From contig JABFRC010000148.1 in NCBI GenBank assembly GCA_013141375.1, forward strand, positions 1-35,760: 35,760 nucleotides of DNA, in the 5' to 3' direction. Shown piece after piece: positions 152 through 18,980 of the stretch. The notes under the pieces are model-generated. The model had not been told where the DNA came from. It did no database searches and saw nothing but the letters and a program-made list of their open reading frames with translations. Each line of letters opens with the position of its first letter. Within the stretch, counting starts at the first letter, position 1. The translations under genes were made by a program, and so were the position numbers. The stretch comes from Methylococcaceae bacterium (GTDB taxonomy: Bacteria > Pseudomonadota > Gammaproteobacteria > Methylococcales > Methylomonadaceae).

Positions 152-1285
152 ATGCAAGACGGCGTCAGATTTGCTACAACTGAAGAAGAATTGACAGCGT
201 CTTTTCAACTTCGCTATCGCGTGTATGTCGAATGCATGGGTAGGCTCAAGGATAAGGGTGATCACGAGCTTAAAGAATTGAGGGATGAATACGATGAAAA
301 TGCCCGGGCCGTAATCGCTATCAAGGACAATGAAGCGATTGGCACCCTGAGATTATTCTGGGGAGGAGATAAACCATTTTCACAGACACTTATAGATGCC
401 TACCATTTATCGTCGTTCCTGGATAAATTAGATCAACATCAAATTTGTATTGTTGAGCGCTTGATGGTGGATGATAAACATCGCGGCTCAAGTGCGACTT
501 TACGAATGTATAAAGAAGTTATGCATTTTGTTCTTGAGAATAAAATTGAAGCTGTACTGCTTGATTGCGAGCCCCATCATTTAAATTCTTACTTGAAGCT
601 TGGTTTTAGATCATTTACTCATACCTATTCCTATCCTGGTATCGGCTTGGTGATTCCAATGGTCTTGATATCCGGTGATTACGAACATCTACAAAACGTC
701 GGTTCGCCGTTCGCGTTATTAACCAGTGAAAAAGACCTGGGACATTGTCTTTATGTGAATGAATTGCTTGAGATCATTGGAGGGAGTCAAAATGTGGTAA
801 GTCAGGCGGCTTCAAATCAGACTGATTTTATTAGGCAGATTTACGCTGATAAGTATCTTTGGGAAGACGGTAATCCAAAAATATTTGATGCCTTGAGTGA
901 GGATGAAATTGGTCGAGTTATTGAGAAAAGCCATATCATTGAGTGTAAACAGGGGGATCACATTATTGAAAAAAATAATGCCGCTAAGACAATGTTTGTC
1001 GTGCTCTCGGGGATGGTAGAGGTTTTTCGAAATAAGGATCAATTGGCAGTTATTCCAAAGGGTGGAGTTATTGGTGAAGTTGCTTTTTTTTTACACAGTT
1101 CTCGTTCTGCCAGCATTGTTGCGGCTACGGATGATGTCAGGTTATTAAGTCTTGATGAGCCATCCATGTCGCGATTGTTGAAGTATGAACCTGTGTTGGC
1201 CAACAAGATTTTGACTAATTTGTGTCGAGTATTGTGCTCGAGGTTGATTGGCGGTGTTGAAACATCAGATCTTAGATCGAGTTGA
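152..1285 (+). CDS. GNAT-like acyltransferase fused to a C-terminal cyclic-nucleotide-binding domain
   Basis: Residues about 5-175 look like a GNAT/N-acyl amino acid synthase (autoinducer-synthase-like) fold: an early FQLRYRVYVE strand, a central VERLMVDDKHRG segment (101-112) and a late LKLGFR turn (148-153). Residues about 245-365 form a cyclic-nucleotide-binding domain. Its phosphate-binding cassette is recognisable, with G308-E309 and R318-S319-A320. No helix-turn-helix follows, so this is not a CRP-type regulator. A cyclic nucleotide probably controls acyl transfer, as in the mycobacterial Pat lysine acetyltransferases, although there the cNMP domain is N-terminal. The substrate is unknown. 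The ATG has a Shine-Dalgarno AGGA 5 nt upstream. Base composition is AT-richer than most of the window. The gene is monocistronic in view and ends at a strong terminator. Domain calls are firm; function is inferred. Confidence 0.8.
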   Translation: MQDGVRFATTEEELTASFQLRYRVYVECMGRLKDKGDHELKELRDEYDENARAVIAIKDNEAIGTLRLFWGGDKPFSQTLIDAYHLSSFLDKLDQHQICIVERLMVDDKHRGSSATLRMYKEVMHFVLENKIEAVLLDCEPHHLNSYLKLGFRSFTHTYSYPGIGLVIPMVLISGDYEHLQNVGSPFALLTSEKDLGHCLYVNELLEIIGGSQNVVSQAASNQTDFIRQIYADKYLWEDGNPKIFDALSEDEIGRVIEKSHIIECKQGDHIIEKNNAAKTMFVVLSGMVEVFRNKDQLAVIPKGGVIGEVAFFLHSSRSASIVAATDDVRLLSLDEPSMSRLLKYEPVLANKILTNLCRVLCSRLIGGVETSDLRSS

Positions 1286-3170: not shown

Positions 3171-4055
3171 TCAGTCAATAAAACGCTTGGTTAAGTCGCC
3201 ATAGGCTTCAATGCGTCGATCGCGTAAATAAGGCCAAATCCGTCTGACACGTTCGGATCGGTTACCGTCAAGCTCACAGGTTAATAGAGTGCTGTCATTT
3301 TTGTTGGCGCGGAGAATGAATTCTCCTTGCGGACCTGCAATAAAGCTGTTGCCCCAGAATTGAATGCCGGCGTCAGAATCCGGTGCTTTTTCGAAACCAA
3401 TACGATTGCATGAAATAACCGGAATGCCGTTTGCCACCGCATGTGCTCGCTGCACAGTAACCCAGGCATCTAATTGGCGTTGTTGTTCTTCCTTGGTATC
3501 TTCAGGATCCCAGCCGATAGCGGTAGGGTAGATCAATATTTCTGCACCGGCCAATGCCATTAGTCGGGCCGCTTCCGGGAACCATTGATCCCAGCAAATT
3601 AAAACACCCAACTTGCCGATTGAGGTTGAAATAGGGGTAAATCCCAAATCACCGGGTGTGAAATAGTATTTTTCGTAAAAGCCGGGGTCGTCGGGAATGT
3701 GCATTTTTCGGTATTTGCCGGCAATGCTGCCGTCTTTGTCAAAAACAACCGCAGTATTGTGATAAAGCCCTGCTGCGCGTTTTTCGAATATGGTCGAGAC
3801 AATGACGATGCCTAGCTTTTCTGCCACGTTCGCCAGAATTTCTGTAGTTGGTCCTGGAATGGCTTGAGCCAGATCAAAATGTTGATGATCTTCATTCTGG
3901 CAAAAATAAGGTCCAAGATGCAGCTCTGGTAACACGACTAAATCAGACTTTGCCGCTGCGGCTTCATGGATTTTTTCTATGGAATAGTCGAGATTGCTTT
4001 GTCGATCTTTGTCGCAGGGTTGTTGGACGGCAGTAACGATGAGATTGCTTTTCAT
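3171..4055 (-). CDS. aguB: N-carbamoylputrescine amidase-like carbon-nitrogen hydrolase
   Basis: A nitrilase-superfamily amidase of 294 residues, the usual length. The Glu-Lys-Cys triad is visible: E44 in LPELH, K117 in YRKMHIPDD and C154 in LICWDQWFPE. The DQWFPE segment and the C-terminal RRIWPYLRDRR are typical of AguB, which hydrolyses N-carbamoylputrescine to putrescine, CO2 and ammonia in the agmatine route. The usual partner agmatine deiminase (aguA) is not adjacent: downstream is a TPR protein and upstream is divergent dapA. The assignment rests on residues close to the active site; another small carbamoyl or amide substrate is possible. The enzyme should be cytoplasmic. Confidence 0.82.
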   Translation of the reverse strand: MKSNLIVTAVQQPCDKDRQSNLDYSIEKIHEAAAAKSDLVVLPELHLGPYFCQNEDHQHFDLAQAIPGPTTEILANVAEKLGIVIVSTIFEKRAAGLYHNTAVVFDKDGSIAGKYRKMHIPDDPGFYEKYYFTPGDLGFTPISTSIGKLGVLICWDQWFPEAARLMALAGAEILIYPTAIGWDPEDTKEEQQRQLDAWVTVQRAHAVANGIPVISCNRIGFEKAPDSDAGIQFWGNSFIAGPQGEFILRANKNDSTLLTCELDGNRSERVRRIWPYLRDRRIEAYGDLTKRFID

Positions 4056-4185
4056 GGCATAGGAACTTAGGTGGTTTTCAATAGCCTCATTTTACAATAG
4101 CTTGGCTTGCATATAGGTATTCATTAAATAAAGTATGGCGATTTTACGCAAATGAATTCGCTAAGCTGGGCTTTGCCTGTTTGCT

Positions 4186-4194
4186 TGTTATAAT
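4186..4194 (+). promoter_or_regulatory. Extended -10 promoter for dapA
   Basis: TG-T-TATAAT (TG at 4186-4187, perfect TATAAT at 4189-4194) forms an extended -10 element about 43 nt before the dapA ATG. No good -35 hexamer lies 16-18 nt upstream, as expected for extended -10 promoters. The 181-nt gap between divergent aguB and dapA holds no gene. Confidence 0.6.
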
Positions 4195-4236
4195 GGCCGC
4201 CAATTTACAAACATACAGTTCTGATCGAGAGATTTC

Positions 4237-5112
4237 ATGATTCAAGGTAGTATCGTAGCATTAGTGACACCGATGGATGAAAGCGGTGCTGTTGATAAGG
4301 AAAGTTTAAAAAAGTTGCTGGAATTTCATATCGAGCAAGGCACTGATGCCATTGTTGCCGTAGGTACGACTGGCGAATCTGCTACGTTGGATGAAGATGA
4401 GCATTGCGATGTCATCAAAACCACGGTTGAAATTGTTGCCGGGAGAATCCCGGTCATAGCCGGAACCGGCGCCAATGCAACTTCTGAAGCGATTAATCTC
4501 ACGCGAAAAGCCAAGCAGGCTGGTGCTGATGCTTGTCTTATCGTCACGCCGTATTACAACAAGCCAACGCAAGAAGGCTTGTATCTTCATTACAAAGCCA
4601 TCGCCGAAGCCGTCGATATTCCGCAGATTTTATACAACGTACCGGGCAGAACCGCTTGCGATATGCTGCCGGAAACCGTTGGCAGACTCTCCCATGTCGA
4701 TAACATTGTCGGTATCAAAGACGCCACCGGCGATTTGTCCAGAGTAAAGAAATTCCTAGAATTGTCAGGCAAAGATTTTGCGTTATACAGTGGCGACGAT
4801 GCCACCAGTCGTGAGTTTTGTTTACTCGGAGGTCATGGCTCTATCACGGTGACCGGCAATGTGGCGCCGCGCTTGGTACATGAGATGATTACTGCTGCAA
4901 TAAAAGGTGACAGCGAAACCGCACTGGCTATTGATAAAAAGTTACAAGCTTTGCACAAAGATCTTTTCATCCAGTCTAACCCTATCCCAGTGAAATGGGC
5001 GGTAGCCGAATTAGGTTTGATAGGCAAGGGTATTCGCTTGCCGTTAACTTGGTTGACCGAAGATTGCTTTGATATTGTTCGCAGCGCAATGCATCAGGCG
5101 GAAGTATTGTGA
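4237..5112 (+). CDS. dapA: 4-hydroxy-tetrahydrodipicolinate synthase
   Basis: DapA condenses pyruvate with aspartate semialdehyde, the first committed step to meso-diaminopimelate and lysine. The 291-residue length is normal. The key residues are all present: Schiff-base K161 (GIKDATGD), the T44-T45, Y107 and Y133 proton relay, and R138 for the substrate carboxylate. The TIM-barrel signature GTTGES lies at 43-48. The ATG at 4237 follows a GAGA ribosome-binding site. The stop overlaps the ATG of bamC by one base (TGATG), so the two are translationally coupled. The same dapA-bamC pair occurs in Escherichia coli. Confidence 0.97.
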
Positions 5113-15128: not shown

Positions 15129-15152
15129 GGGCTTTTTCAATTCTTAAAGCCC
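15129..15152. terminator. Weak hairpin between convergent cvfB and rimK-like genes
   Basis: A 7-bp stem (GGGCTTT at 15129-15135 with AAAGCCC at 15146-15152) overlaps the stop codon of the minus-strand gene. There is no long T run on either side, so termination is only possible, not shown. Confidence 0.3.
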
Positions 15153-16616
15153 CTTGCTTCGATTCTCCATTCGCCTGAGCAATTCGGTCAAAATCAAACG
15201 ATACAGCTCATCGCCTAAATAACTGTCTTCGATGCCGCTGTCGATATTGGGGTTGTCGTTGACTTCTATCACATAGCCTTTGCCGTTTTTCTCTTTGACA
15301 TCCACGCCGTATAAGCCGTCGCCGATGAACTGCGTGGCTTTTAACGCGGCTTCGAGAACTGCTTTTGGCGCTTCAAAAGTGGGCAAGGTATCGAACTTGC
15401 CGCTGTCGGTGCGTTTGCTGCCGTGACGGTAAATCTGCCAATGGTTTTTCACCATGTAGTAGCGGCAGGCGTATAGGGCCTTGTTGTTAAATACGCCGAT
15501 GCGCCAGTCGAAATCGGTGTAGAGAAATTCCTGCGCCAGCAACAGTGCCGATTGTTCGAATAACTCTGCCACTTTAATATCCAGTTCTTGCCGCGTGTGT
15601 ACTTTGACGATGCCGCGTGAGAAAGAACCGTCGGGAATTTTGATCACGATCGGAAAGCCGGCGTCCACTTCCAGCAAGTCCAGATGCGCAGTATTGCCTT
15701 TATGCAGTATCCAGGTGCGCGGCGAGGGTACTTTGTGGGTACGGAAGAGGTCTGCCAGATAGACTTTATTGGTGCAGCGCAGCATCGAAGTGGGATCGTC
15801 AATGACCACCAAGCCTTCAGCTTCGGCCTTTTTGGCGAAGCGATAGGTGTAGTGGTCGATGGACGTGGTTTCCCGGATAAACAAGCCGTCAAATTCAGGC
15901 AATCGCCCGTAGTGCTGTTGGCTGATCAATTCGACGTCTATGCCTAATTCACGGCCGATTTTGATGAATTTTTTCAGCGCGCCTCGATTGCTGGGCGGCA
16001 GTTGTTCTTCCGGATTGACCAAAATGGCCAGATCATAACGGGCGCTTTTACGGATGCGGCCTTTACGCCAGATTTTTTTACTGAACTTGTCTAGTGCATC
16101 GGCAAATAGCGTTTGTTGCGACTCATCCAGCTCGCGCGGCGATATGGCGTTTAAGTCGGTGATTTCCCATTGCTGACCAAAGTGCAGGGTGATCTCCAAA
16201 ATCGGACAAGTGAAGCGCTCAAATAACAAACGGGCAAGTTCCTGGAAGGCGGGTTCCGGCGCAGTGCCGAAGTAGCTTCGGAACACATATTCGGTGTCTT
16301 TGGCCCGATGTTTAAATGCTTTTGCCAGTGGCCCTGTCAGGTCTTCAAGTTGCAAGCGATACAGGGCATTTTTGCCTAAATCATTCAGTGTTTTAACTGA
16401 CGGAATGACATGGTGGCCTCTGGCTTCGGCAAGCAACGAGCAGTAATAGCCATCGGATAGATAGGAATAGCTGCTGCACAGATTGATCACCCGTACCCGT
16501 TGTTCGGAGTCACCTTGCTCGGTCGCCAGATAGTTTTCGAAGGTGATGACCTGGTTACTGGGGTAATACGGGCTCCAGTCGGAAAGATTGTCAACAACCA
16601 GCAGTGTGCGAGCCAT
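15144..16616 (-). CDS. RimK-like ATP-grasp ligase with an N-terminal RLAN-type domain
   Basis: A 490-residue protein. Residues about 1-150 match the domain found N-terminal to some RimK-like ATP-grasp enzymes; 195-290 is a pre-ATP-grasp region; 290-484 is the ATP-grasp fold. Catalytic landmarks are K326 (IVIKIPDG), the SFSRG loop (331-335), D439 (GVDV), and E451 and N453 (EVNDNPN) for Mg-ATP. RimK-type enzymes join an amino acid, often glutamate, to a carboxyl group of a peptide, protein or small molecule. This one is longer than RimK itself (about 300 residues), so it is not ribosomal S6 modification enzyme by length. It is divergent from a zinc-peptidase-like gene and a GNAT-peptidase fusion, suggesting a joint pathway. 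The acceptor is unknown. Confidence 0.85.
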   Translation of the reverse strand: MARTLLVVDNLSDWSPYYPSNQVITFENYLATEQGDSEQRVRVINLCSSYSYLSDGYYCSLLAEARGHHVIPSVKTLNDLGKNALYRLQLEDLTGPLAKAFKHRAKDTEYVFRSYFGTAPEPAFQELARLLFERFTCPILEITLHFGQQWEITDLNAISPRELDESQQTLFADALDKFSKKIWRKGRIRKSARYDLAILVNPEEQLPPSNRGALKKFIKIGRELGIDVELISQQHYGRLPEFDGLFIRETTSIDHYTYRFAKKAEAEGLVVIDDPTSMLRCTNKVYLADLFRTHKVPSPRTWILHKGNTAHLDLLEVDAGFPIVIKIPDGSFSRGIVKVHTRQELDIKVAELFEQSALLLAQEFLYTDFDWRIGVFNNKALYACRYYMVKNHWQIYRHGSKRTDSGKFDTLPTFEAPKAVLEAALKATQFIGDGLYGVDVKEKNGKGYVIEVNDNPNIDSGIEDSYLGDELYRLILTELLRRMENRSKGL

Positions 16617-16662
16617 AGCTAATAAAATCCTGTAGTAATATCATGGGTAAGGTGTCGGGCGG

Positions 16663-16729
16663 GTTTAACCGTCCGTGGCGAGCAGAATCATGAACGGCTT
16701 AATCTAAACTCAGGATGAACGGTTTAGTC
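16663..16729. promoter_or_regulatory. Repeated ACGGYTTA-like elements in the divergent promoter
   Basis: Two direct copies of a 15-bp element, ATGAACGGCTTAATC (16690-16704) and ATGAACGGTTTAGTC (16715-16729), match at 13 of 15 positions with a 25-bp period. A third, inverted, shorter copy (GACGGTTAAAC on the minus strand) lies at 16663-16673. They fill the 169-nt gap between the RimK-like gene and the DUF2817 gene, so one regulator could act on both directions. No obvious sigma-70 pair could be assigned. Confidence 0.45.
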
Positions 16730-16785
16730 ATCACTTAAGAGCGAAGGGACTGGCACTATGCTAACAAAACATTCGGGTAATCAAT

Positions 16786-17883
16786 ATGAATTACAGCTGC
16801 CCTTCTACCGATATTGATATACAGGTTTTTCCTGCAAGTTATTTGCTTGCTCGGAAGCATTTTCAGCATAAAGTTGAAAAGCTGACTTTGCCTACGCAAA
16901 CAGCATCATATTCTTGTCCCGGTACTACGCCGGATGGTGAGGCGTTGACTACAGATACAGTGTGGATAGGTGATTCTGACGCATCAAAAGTAGTAGTGTT
17001 AATTAGTGCGACTCACGGTATAGAAGGCTTTGCCGGTAGTGCAATAGAGATTGATTTTCTTAACTTGCTGGGGTCAGGGCAAATATCACTCCCACAAAAT
17101 ACGGCGGTATTGCTGATTCACGCTCTGACACCATGGGGTTATGCCTGGCACCGGCGCTGCGATGAGGATGGCGTTGATATTAATCGCAATCTGCTCGATT
17201 TTTCGCGGCCCTTACCTGAAAACATTGGTTATGATTTACTTCGACCTACCTTTTTTTGGGCAGATGCTCAGCAAAGAAAAAAAGTCTGCGCTGAATTTGC
17301 CCAGCAACATGGCCGGGAAGCGTTGGAAAAAGCCATCAGTGCTGGGCAATATAATGACCCTTCCGGGCCTTTTTATGGCGGCAAAGTGCCTGCGCATGGC
17401 CGCTTGGTGACTGAACAACTAATGCGCGAGTATAACTTGCAGGACCGTGATTTGGCGGTGATTGATTTGCATACGGGCCTCGGATCCTACGGTTATGGTG
17501 AGATTATTTGCGACCATCAGCCGGATAGTGCAGGCACCAGGGTCGCGCATGCTTGGTATGGTGATTCAGTGACTTTGCCTTTATTGGGCACGTCCAGTTC
17601 AGTCCCTAAGACCGGTCTGCTGGATTATGCCTGGCATGCGATTATGAGTGAGCGCAGTTGCTACATAACGCTGGAATTCGGCACCTTTAGCACAGATCAA
17701 TTGTTTGAAGTGCTATTGCGAGACCATCAGATCTGGGCGCATGAGACGGACTTGCCAACGCGATTAGCGCAGGCAAAATCCATGCGTCATCACTTTTGCC
17801 CGAATGACCAGGCTTGGCAAGAAATGGTGTTGTTTCGTGCCAGACAAGTAATTAGCCAGGCAATACATGGAGTGTCATCTTGA
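16786..17883 (+). CDS. DUF2817 zinc-carboxypeptidase-like protein (M14 fold)
   Basis: A 365-residue DUF2817 protein related to M14 carboxypeptidases and AstE/aspartoacylase deacylases. The metal-binding residues can be traced: H77 and E80 (ATHGIEG, the HxxE motif) and H229 (DLHTGLG). R134-N135 (DINRN) match the substrate-carboxylate residues and E297 (TLEFGT) the catalytic glutamate. It has no signal peptide, so it should act in the cytoplasm. It may hydrolyse a C-terminal amide or peptide bond, possibly the one made by the neighbouring ATP-grasp enzyme; that link is inference. Its stop overlaps the next gene by 4 nt (TTGA). Confidence 0.85.
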   Translation: MNYSCPSTDIDIQVFPASYLLARKHFQHKVEKLTLPTQTASYSCPGTTPDGEALTTDTVWIGDSDASKVVVLISATHGIEGFAGSAIEIDFLNLLGSGQISLPQNTAVLLIHALTPWGYAWHRRCDEDGVDINRNLLDFSRPLPENIGYDLLRPTFFWADAQQRKKVCAEFAQQHGREALEKAISAGQYNDPSGPFYGGKVPAHGRLVTEQLMREYNLQDRDLAVIDLHTGLGSYGYGEIICDHQPDSAGTRVAHAWYGDSVTLPLLGTSSSVPKTGLLDYAWHAIMSERSCYITLEFGTFSTDQLFEVLLRDHQIWAHETDLPTRLAQAKSMRHHFCPNDQAWQEMVLFRARQVISQAIHGVSS

Positions 17884-18980
17884 GTCTATCAATTCGCGAT
17901 GCTCGCTTAGCCGATCTGGAGGCCTTAGTGGTGCTGGAAAATGCCAGTTTTGATACTGACCGATTAAGTCGGCGCAGTTTTAAACATTGGCTGACGAACG
18001 AGCATCGCGCCTTGCTGGTTGCTGAAGTGGAAAATGTCATCGCCGGTTATATCCTGATCATTTATCACCCCGGCACACGGCTGGCGCGTATTTATTCACT
18101 GGCTGTCAGTCAACAGTCGCGTGGCTTGGGTGTTGCCAAAGCGTTGATGTCTGCCGGTGAACAAGCCGCACGAGAAGATGGACGGCTGTATCTGCGTTTG
18201 GAAGTGAGTGTCGATAATTCGCCCGCCATTAAGTTATACGAAACGCTGGGTTTTCAAAAATTCGGTATCTACCGTGATTATTATGAAGACCACAAAGATG
18301 CCTTACGTTACCAAAAACGCATTCGGCGTTATCCCGATACCCTGCAACATCGCTCAGTCTATTGGTTAAGACAAACTACACCTTTTACCTGCGGTCCGGC
18401 TTCGCTGATGATGGCCATGCACGGACTCAATCGAGCCTATCAACCCTCACAAGAAGAAGAGATCAACTTGTGGCGTGAGGCTACCACTATTTTTATGACA
18501 TCAGGGCATGGCGGTTGCCATCCGATCGGGCTGGCGCTGTCGGCAAAACGTCGACAATTTGCCGTCGAGGTCTGGATCAATCAGACAGGTACTTTGTTTA
18601 TCGACGGTGTTCGCAATGAAGATAACAAACGCATTGTTGAGTTGGTTGATGACAGCTTTAAACGACAGGCAACTGAGCAGGACATTGATGTTCACTACAG
18701 CAATATCTCTCAGGATGATTTGATTGCTGCGTTTAAAGCCGGCGCTATTCCCTTAGTGCTGATCAGCACTTTCAGAATGGATCGCAAAAAAGCGCCGCAC
18801 TGGGTGGTAATGAGCGGGTTTGATGATGATTGCTTATATATGCATGATCCTGATCCCGAAGAGGGGCGTCAAAACGAGCTAGATTGCCAATTTATCCCGA
18901 TTGCCAGGGAAGACTTCGACAGAATGTCTTGCTTTGGGAAAACCAGGTTAAGGACGGCAGTGATTGTTAGTAAGCCATAA
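17880..18980 (+). CDS. GNAT acetyltransferase fused to a C39-like cysteine peptidase
   Basis: A 366-residue two-domain protein. Residues 1-150 are a RimI-like GNAT domain with the acetyl-CoA loop QSRGLGVA (79-86) and the NSPAIKLYETLGF segment (113-125). Residues 155-366 are a C39-like papain-fold peptidase with Q165, C171 (TPFTCGPAS), H307 (APHWVV) and an Asp in HDPDPE (323 or 325). The start is TTG at 17880, backed by GGAG 7 nt upstream and the family-like N-terminus; it overlaps the DUF2817 gene by 4 nt, so the two are coupled. A predicted role is to acetylate and cleave a peptide or tag made by the divergent RimK-like ligase. No export ATPase is present, so it is not a bacteriocin exporter. 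Confidence 0.87.
   Translation: MSLSIRDARLADLEALVVLENASFDTDRLSRRSFKHWLTNEHRALLVAEVENVIAGYILIIYHPGTRLARIYSLAVSQQSRGLGVAKALMSAGEQAAREDGRLYLRLEVSVDNSPAIKLYETLGFQKFGIYRDYYEDHKDALRYQKRIRRYPDTLQHRSVYWLRQTTPFTCGPASLMMAMHGLNRAYQPSQEEEINLWREATTIFMTSGHGGCHPIGLALSAKRRQFAVEVWINQTGTLFIDGVRNEDNKRIVELVDDSFKRQATEQDIDVHYSNISQDDLIAAFKAGAIPLVLISTFRMDRKKAPHWVVMSGFDDDCLYMHDPDPEEGRQNELDCQFIPIAREDFDRMSCFGKTRLRTAVIVSKP

What the first reader, a model, noticed from the sequence alone, without database searches (positions are those of the whole stretch)
15144..18980. Candidate peptide-ligation and peptide-release cluster
A RimK-like ATP-grasp ligase with an N-terminal accessory domain is divergent from a DUF2817 zinc-peptidase-like protein and a GNAT-C39 peptidase fusion; the last two overlap by 4 nt. 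ATP-grasp residues, the M14-type zinc residues and the Cys-His pair are all intact. The ligase would form a peptide or amide bond, the GNAT could acetylate the product, and two peptidases of different type could cleave it. Genome surveys of ATP-grasp amidoligases have predicted peptide-making systems of this general type, but I know of no substrate or phenotype for this set. No precursor peptide gene or exporter is visible.
Basis: partly seen in the sequence, partly recalled or inferred. Interest (0 to 1): 0.75.

Follow-up and report, generated by a model that had tools for sequence, protein, structure and literature searches.

The report
Peptide ligase, acetyltransferase, peptidase gene set
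A methane-eating bacterium carries three neighbouring genes (an amino-acid ligase, an acetyltransferase joined to a protein-cutting domain, and a zinc carboxypeptidase) that travel together across many bacteria and probably make, cap and take apart a small peptide or peptide tag whose identity nobody knows.

Summary
Window 15144-18980 holds an RLAN/RimK-like ATP-grasp ligase, a DUF2817 protein and a GNAT-DUF3335 (C39-like) fusion, with the catalytic residues invariant across the relatives aligned. The fold of the DUF2817 model is an M14 carboxypeptidase (Z 25).

The set is a real functional unit but not an equal trio. In 249 Pseudomonadota genomes the ligase and DUF3335 co-occur almost perfectly (45 of 54 and 46; Fisher 3e-39). 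Of 136 ligase loci, 107 have GNAT-C39 beside them, 13 a bare GNAT, 6 end at a contig edge and 10 have neither. Solo ligases usually come from genomes with GNAT-C39 elsewhere. So the core is ligase plus GNAT, and the C39 domain and DUF2817 are accessories. DUF2817 lies beside 14 of 57 ligases in the phylum sample. Two more partners recur: DUF155 (RMND1 family) and, more weakly, MATCAP.

It is neither the S6 ligase nor RimI; both true enzymes lie elsewhere in this genome. Most likely the ligase and GNAT make an N-acetylated short peptide, as the fused Ngg enzyme does for the osmolyte NAGGN, and the peptidases recycle it. A protein-tail modification with erasers is nearly as likely. The substrate is unknown.

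The parts
15144..16616 (-). RLAN + RimK-like ATP-grasp ligase, 490 aa (core)
   Evidence: Pfam RLAN 175 bits, RimK 33 bits. AlphaFold model residues 194-490 match LysX/RimK/ArgX at Z 26. Nucleotide/Mg residues invariant in 35 relatives. dN/dS 0.016.
16786..17883 (+). DUF2817, M14 carboxypeptidase-like, 365 aa (accessory)
   Evidence: Pfam 298 bits. Model pLDDT 92.5, pTM 0.92. Best structural match insect carboxypeptidase 2c1c, Z 25.0, 263 residues, 2.6 A. H77/E80/H229/E297 and N133-R134 invariant.
17880..18314 (+). GNAT domain of the fusion protein, about residues 1-145 (core)
   Evidence: PF00583 67 bits. Nearest solved structures are N-alpha-acetyltransferases (SSO0209, Ard1, RimI). RimI model 80 bits, cut-off 86.4. 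Occurs alone beside the ligase in 13 loci.
18360..18980 (+). C39-like cysteine peptidase domain (DUF3335), residues 161-366 (accessory)
   Evidence: PF11814 300 bits. C171-H307-D315 and Q165 invariant in 18 relatives.
16617..16785 (.). 169-bp divergent promoter region with tandem ATGAACGG-type repeats (16690-16702 and 16715-16727), candidate operator
   Evidence: Conserved in four same-genus genomes. Repeat read by eye; no binding protein known.

Best explanation
The ligase and the GNAT domain are the two synthetic halves of one pathway. The RLAN ATP-grasp enzyme activates a carboxylate with ATP and joins an amino acid to it (chemistry inferred from the LysX/RimK/ArgX fold and invariant residues). 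The GNAT, of the RimI/Ard1 N-alpha-acetyltransferase type, acetylates the free alpha-amino group. The result is a short, N-terminally blocked cytosolic peptide that ordinary aminopeptidases cannot recycle. The same pairing is known from Ngg, in which one enzyme does both steps for the osmolyte N-acetylglutaminylglutamine amide. The C39-like domain and the M14-type DUF2817 enzyme are the dedicated cytosolic hydrolases that shorten or recycle the product (one endo-type thiol enzyme, one carboxypeptidase-type zinc enzyme); some lineages have a MATCAP carboxypeptidase in the neighbourhood instead. Shown here: domains, fold, intact residues, linkage, co-inheritance, and absence of a precursor gene or exporter beside the set. 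Inferred: substrate, order of steps, that the product is free rather than protein-bound, and that the peptidases act on it.
For: Near-perfect co-occurrence of ligase and DUF3335 (45 of 54 and 46) and adjacency in 43 of 57 ligase genes in four different arrangements. A GNAT lies beside 120 of 136 ligases, with or without the C39 domain. Five of six genomes with a solo ligase keep GNAT-C39 elsewhere. Distances co-vary beyond ribosomal protein S3 (partial r 0.76 in 22 genomes, none of 2000 permutations). Ligase fold LysX/RimK/ArgX Z 26. GNAT nearest to N-alpha-acetyltransferases, with some similarity to the GNAT of Ngg (TIGR03103, 29.5 bits). DUF2817 is an M14 fold. The NAGGN operon pairs GNAT/ligase with an aminopeptidase (PMC8070244).
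Against: No metabolite is known. The ligase itself has no TIGR03103 match among the best 25 of the 29 families found, and no amidotransferase gene lies beside the set in the window. The nearest ligases by fold include RimK, LysX and ArgX, which act on proteins. Phage-type contigs carry the ligase/GNAT pair, which is odd for an osmolyte. DUF155, a membrane-anchored relative of mitochondrial RMND1, fits a translation or membrane role better than a solute.
Confidence: 0.42

Rival explanations
1. Reversible protein-tail modification. The ligase adds one or more amino acids to the C-terminus or a side chain of a protein (as RimK does to ribosomal protein S6, and LysX/ArgX to the carrier LysW), the RimI-type GNAT acetylates the same target or the added residue, and C39, M14 and MATCAP-type peptidases are erasers, comparable in logic to RimK/RimB or to tubulin ligases with CCP and MATCAP carboxypeptidases.
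For: Top structural matches are LysX, RimK and ArgX. GNAT resembles protein N-alpha-acetyltransferases. DUF2817 model is M14, with CCP5 among its Foldseek hits. MATCAP lies beside the set in 5 gammaproteobacterial loci, in two arrangements. DUF155/RMND1 linked in 12 genomes of the phylum sample (my count). Phage-type contigs carry the pair. RimB removes the glutamates that RimK adds (PMC11957791).
Against: No target gene travels with the set. True RimK and RimI occur separately in the genome, so at least the classical targets are served. Enrichment of MATCAP in ligase genomes is weak (Fisher p 0.026).
Confidence: 0.35
2. The ligase/GNAT pair is a writer, but DUF2817 and the C39 domain are salvage or scavenging peptidases with unrelated substrates that sit there through lineage history.
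For: DUF2817 occurs without the ligase in 14 genomes and lies near it in only 14 of 57 ligase genes. DUF2817 changes much faster than the ligase (78% against 97% identity within the genus).
Against: 14 of 32 DUF2817 genes in ligase genomes lie within 6 kb of the ligase, against an expectation near zero (p about 5e-26, ignoring phylogeny), and in at least three gene orders. DUF3335 occurs outside ligase genomes in only 1 of 249 genomes.
Confidence: 0.13
3. The C39-like domain is not a hydrolase but a transpeptidase or acyl carrier-type transferase (its relatives by fold include phytochelatin synthase and BtrH), so the set extends peptides rather than releasing them.
For: Weak phytochelatin synthase similarity (E 0.09). 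A classification of papain-like enzymes treats DUF3335, C39, BtrH and phytochelatin synthase in one group (PMC10318531).
Against: Similarity is weak. The catalytic triad arrangement is also that of a plain peptidase.
Confidence: 0.1

Closest known systems
Predicted RLAN/ATP-grasp peptide-synthesis neighbourhoods (Iyer et al. 2009, doi 10.1039/b917682a; Pfam RLAN)
   Same: Same ligase family; GNAT-DUF3335 fusions are credited to that survey as possible peptide ligases or acetylating enzymes (PMC10318531).
   Different: The paper itself was not held, so whether it lists the M14/DUF2817, DUF155 or MATCAP partners could not be checked; the RLAN attribution is from memory.
NAGGN system (asnO, ngg, peptidase)
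   Same: GNAT plus ATP-grasp ligase plus a peptidase in one locus (PMC8070244).
   Different: In Ngg the two domains are fused; NAGGN needs an amidotransferase (one ligase locus, L099, has an asparagine synthetase-type neighbour, but below the NAGGN cut-off); peptidases are of other families.
RimK/RimB ribosome modification
   Same: RimK-type ligase with a peptidase that undoes its work (PMC11957791).
   Different: RLAN domain added; peptidases are C39 and M14, not retropepsin; no GNAT in the Rim system as described; true RimK is separate here.
RloABC of Pseudomonas aeruginosa
   Same: ATP-grasp protein plus peptidase in an operon (PMC12239564).
   Different: Secreted retropepsin and membrane transglutaminase-like protein; no RLAN, GNAT or M14.
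Tubulin-code enzymes (TTL/TTLL ligases, CCP and MATCAP carboxypeptidases)
   Same: ATP-grasp ligase against M14 and MATCAP carboxypeptidases (working logic only).
   Different: Eukaryotic, different ATP-grasp families, no GNAT-C39; analogy, not membership.

Membership tests
RLAN-type ATP-grasp ligase (PF14401) | RLAN domain above gathering score, followed by ATP-grasp | tested here: met
   175 bits against 25; RimK 33 against 21
RLAN-type ATP-grasp ligase (PF14401) | Intact nucleotide and metal residues | tested here: met
   K284, K326, D439, E451, N453 invariant in 35 relatives
RLAN-type ATP-grasp ligase (PF14401) | Amide or peptide bond formation | not testable with these tools
   No assay; chemistry inferred from fold
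Ribosomal protein S6 glutamate ligase (RimK, NF007764) | Score above equivalog cut-off | tested here: not met
   40.8 against 331 bits; another gene in the genome scores 469
RimI S18 acetyltransferase (TIGR01575) | Score above equivalog cut-off | tested here: not met
   80.1 against 86.4; true RimI elsewhere, 139 bits
NAGGN synthetase (TIGR03103) | Fused GNAT and ATP-grasp, score above cut-off | tested here: not met
   Separate proteins; 29.5 against 569 bits
M14 metallocarboxypeptidase | M14 fold | tested here: met
   Z 25.0 over 263 residues at 2.6 A, on a model with pLDDT 92.5
M14 metallocarboxypeptidase | HxxE...H zinc ligands, catalytic Glu, Asn-Arg pair for the substrate carboxylate | tested here: met
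   H77, E80, H229, E297, N133-R134 invariant in 25 relatives; equivalence to carboxypeptidase A residues assigned by motif, from general knowledge
M14 metallocarboxypeptidase | Carboxypeptidase activity and zinc binding | not testable with these tools
   No assay
DUF3335 C39-like cysteine peptidase | Domain above cut-off with Cys-His-Asp | tested here: met
   300 bits; C171, H307, D315 invariant
C39 bacteriocin-processing exporter | Fusion to ABC transporter and double-glycine leader substrate | tested here: not met
   Fused to GNAT instead; no transporter or precursor beside it
Graspetide or other RiPP cluster | Precursor peptide gene beside the ligase | tested here: not met
   No conserved small ORF in the spacers; a precursor elsewhere in the genome was not sought

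The most novel reading that the evidence does not exclude
A previously unrecognised reversible modification of bacterial proteins: an ATP-grasp writer and an N-terminal-acetyltransferase cap, with C39, M14 and MATCAP-type erasers and a membrane-anchored RMND1-family partner, i.e. a bacterial counterpart of the tubulin code that touches translation, with minimal writer pairs also carried by phages.
Probability: 0.25. Interest if true: 0.8.

Novelty: new variant of a known kind. Interest (0 to 1): 0.5.

Why it matters
RLAN genes occur in about a fifth of sampled Pseudomonadota genomes (54 of 249) and no function for the set was found in the papers held. Showing which parts are constant (ligase and GNAT) and which are optional (C39, M14, DUF155, MATCAP) turns a vague cluster into a testable pathway: delete ligase or GNAT and look for one missing product. 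If the product is a metabolite it is a widespread unknown one; if a protein tag, a new kind of bacterial protein modification with dedicated erasers. The link to DUF155 could give a bacterial handle on RMND1, a human mitochondrial disease protein.

Tried and rejected
Ordinary S6 modification: rejected. RiPP or graspetide cluster: no precursor. Anti-phage defence: no PADLOC match for any of the three. NAGGN synthesis proper: below cut-offs. Literature: the 2009 amidoligase survey is not held; searches for RLAN, DUF2817 and DUF3335 found only one classification remark and none on function. A phage YerA41 hit (H12) that looked like a virion-borne member proved to be a RimK-RimB-type hybrid, not of this clade. 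Other recurrent neighbours (for example the conserved block around the set in Marinobacter) are shared synteny of close relatives. MATCAP is reported but its genome-level enrichment is weak. Co-inheritance of DUF2817 rests on 8 genomes only. The Fisher and binomial values ignore phylogeny.
Full report
WHERE IT IS. The window belongs to a Methylobacter-like methanotroph: the ligase is 96% identical to that of Methylobacter sp. STB_140 and about 80-83% to most other Methylococcaceae. The genome held is 3.9 Mb in 373 contigs, 96% complete. Neighbours of the set are housekeeping or unrelated: RapA and CvfB upstream, a DedA-family protein downstream. They differ between relatives even within the family, so the set moves as a unit.

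THE OBSERVATION. All three genes are as described. Catalytic residues are invariant in wide alignments, and within the genus all three are under purifying selection, the ligase extremely so (dN/dS 0.016). The 4-nt overlap of DUF2817 and GNAT-C39 recurs in the same-genus loci L013 and L014. The divergent spacer holds a conserved block with tandem ATGAACGG-type repeats 25 bp apart, a candidate operator.

WHAT THE PROTEINS ARE. The ligase model (pLDDT 85.5) matches LysX, RimK and ArgX over residues 194-490 (Z 25-27); these join amino acids to a carboxylate of a peptide or protein (general knowledge of these families). Its N-terminal RLAN domain could not be placed. By NCBI's models it is not RimK (40.8 bits, cut-off 331), and a true S6 ligase gene lies on another contig. 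The GNAT domain is closest to N-alpha-acetyltransferases (SSO0209/Ard1, RimI) and falls just short of the RimI cut-off; a true RimI lies elsewhere. DUF2817, unknown in Pfam, gives a confident model (pLDDT 92.5, pTM 0.92) with the carboxypeptidase fold (Z 25, 263 residues, 2.6 A). By motif it keeps the zinc ligands, the catalytic Glu and the Asn-Arg pair that holds a substrate's C-terminal carboxylate. Succinylglutamate desuccinylases, murein amidase MpaA, cyanophycin dipeptide hydrolase CphZ and tubulin deglutamylase CCP5 are among its weaker Foldseek matches. The C39-like domain keeps its Cys-His-Asp and Gln. None of the three protein starts looks like a signal peptide (read by eye; no predictor was run).

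WHO TRAVELS WITH WHOM. In 249 Pseudomonadota genomes: ligase 54, DUF3335 46, both 45 (Fisher 3e-39); DUF2817 (strong hits) 39, of which 25 with the ligase; all three in 22. Among 57 ligase genes, 43 have DUF3335 within 6 kb, in divergent, co-directional (both orders) and convergent arrangements; 14 have DUF2817. In 136 ligase loci examined gene by gene, 107 have full GNAT-C39 next to them, 13 a bare GNAT, 6 end at a contig edge, and 10 have neither. Of six genomes with a solo ligase that were searched, five carry GNAT-C39 elsewhere. There are exceptions the other way: two same-family genomes (G007, G010) have DUF3335 but no ligase was found. Three genomes of genus g31 have two ligase loci each, one with GNAT-C39; the other has a bare GNAT in two of the three. 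Pairwise distances of ligase and GNAT-C39 correlate beyond those of ribosomal protein S3 (partial r 0.76). The conclusion is that ligase plus GNAT is the core, the C39 domain is a frequent fusion, and DUF2817 is a lineage-dependent third part.

FURTHER PARTNERS. DUF155, the RMND1 family with a C-terminal membrane anchor (anchor read from sequence), is in 19 of 54 ligase genomes against 11 of 195 others (p 1e-7). By my count it lies beside the set in 12 genomes, mostly in family f40, plus in three named gammaproteobacterial loci. In the window's genome it is present but unlinked. In G026, GNAT-C39, DUF2817 and DUF155 stand together while the ligase with a bare GNAT is elsewhere, so these behave as two modules. 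MATCAP (PF08014) lies beside the set in five gammaproteobacterial loci; its genome-level enrichment is weak (p 0.026).

VIRAL COPIES. Nine viral-collection contigs encode relatives of this ligase clade. The seven compared score far higher to this ligase than to RimK (172-297 against at most 54 bits for any other ATP-grasp tested). In four, a bare GNAT overlaps the ligase gene; no peptidase of the set is nearby and the RLAN domain is missing. This independently points to the same core pair. They are rare: a second scan added no new contigs.

MECHANISM. I commit to a pathway in which ligase and GNAT build an N-acetyl-capped short peptide and the two peptidases recycle it (0.42). The precedent is Ngg, which both acetylates and ligates, with an aminopeptidase in its operon. 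Reversible modification of a protein is close behind (0.35): the RimK/LysX fold, the protein-type GNAT, M14 and MATCAP relatives, DUF155 and phage carriage all fit it. Nothing here tells the two apart. The measurements that would are listed under next steps.

NOVELTY. ATP-grasp peptide systems with GNAT and peptidase partners were predicted in 2009 (paper not held; cited for GNAT-DUF3335). The family-level idea is therefore known. What I have not seen described in the papers I could search is the M14 nature of DUF2817 as a partner, the reduction of the core to ligase plus GNAT, and the DUF155 and MATCAP links. I rate it a new variant of a known kind, of middling interest, because the substrate remains open.

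Noticed in passing
L200, L202, L204, L205 (about 3490-4900 in each): Viral contigs with a bare GNAT overlapping a ligase of this clade that lacks the RLAN domain; no peptidases of the set nearby.
   Followed up: partly
L198:2469-7396: Ligase of this clade directly upstream of an SU10-type portal gene and downstream of a terminase-like gene (one search confirms the portal only).
   Followed up: no
L105, L107, L141, L142, L144, L146-L148, L151, L152, L161, L054, L068, L076: DUF155/RMND1-family gene within 4.5 kb of the ligase, in two or more classes.
   Followed up: partly
L067:5896-7200, L069:3769-5055, L076:4241-5578, L078:5325-6737, L085:1186-2703: MATCAP (tubulin tyrosine carboxypeptidase family) gene beside the set, in two arrangements.
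   Followed up: partly
window 16690-16727: Two ATGAACGG-type repeats 25 bp apart in the divergent spacer, conserved in four same-genus genomes.
   Followed up: no
window 152-1285: FeeM-like N-acyl amino acid synthase/GNAT domain fused to a cyclic-nucleotide-binding domain.
   Followed up: no
L207:4638-6059 (Yersinia phage YerA41): RimK-like ligase with a C-terminal retropepsin-type (Zn_protease) domain, annotated as structural protein; looks like the known RimK-RimB hybrid.
   Followed up: partly
L197:5911-7500 (Pseudomonas aeruginosa plasmid): RLAN ligase without GNAT, near a glutamate/aspartate transporter and gamma-glutamyltransferase genes.
   Followed up: no
L163 4133-5194 and 13189-14397; L164 6245-7339: Distant GNAT-DUF3335 copies without a ligase, in genomes that also hold the linked set.
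   Followed up: no
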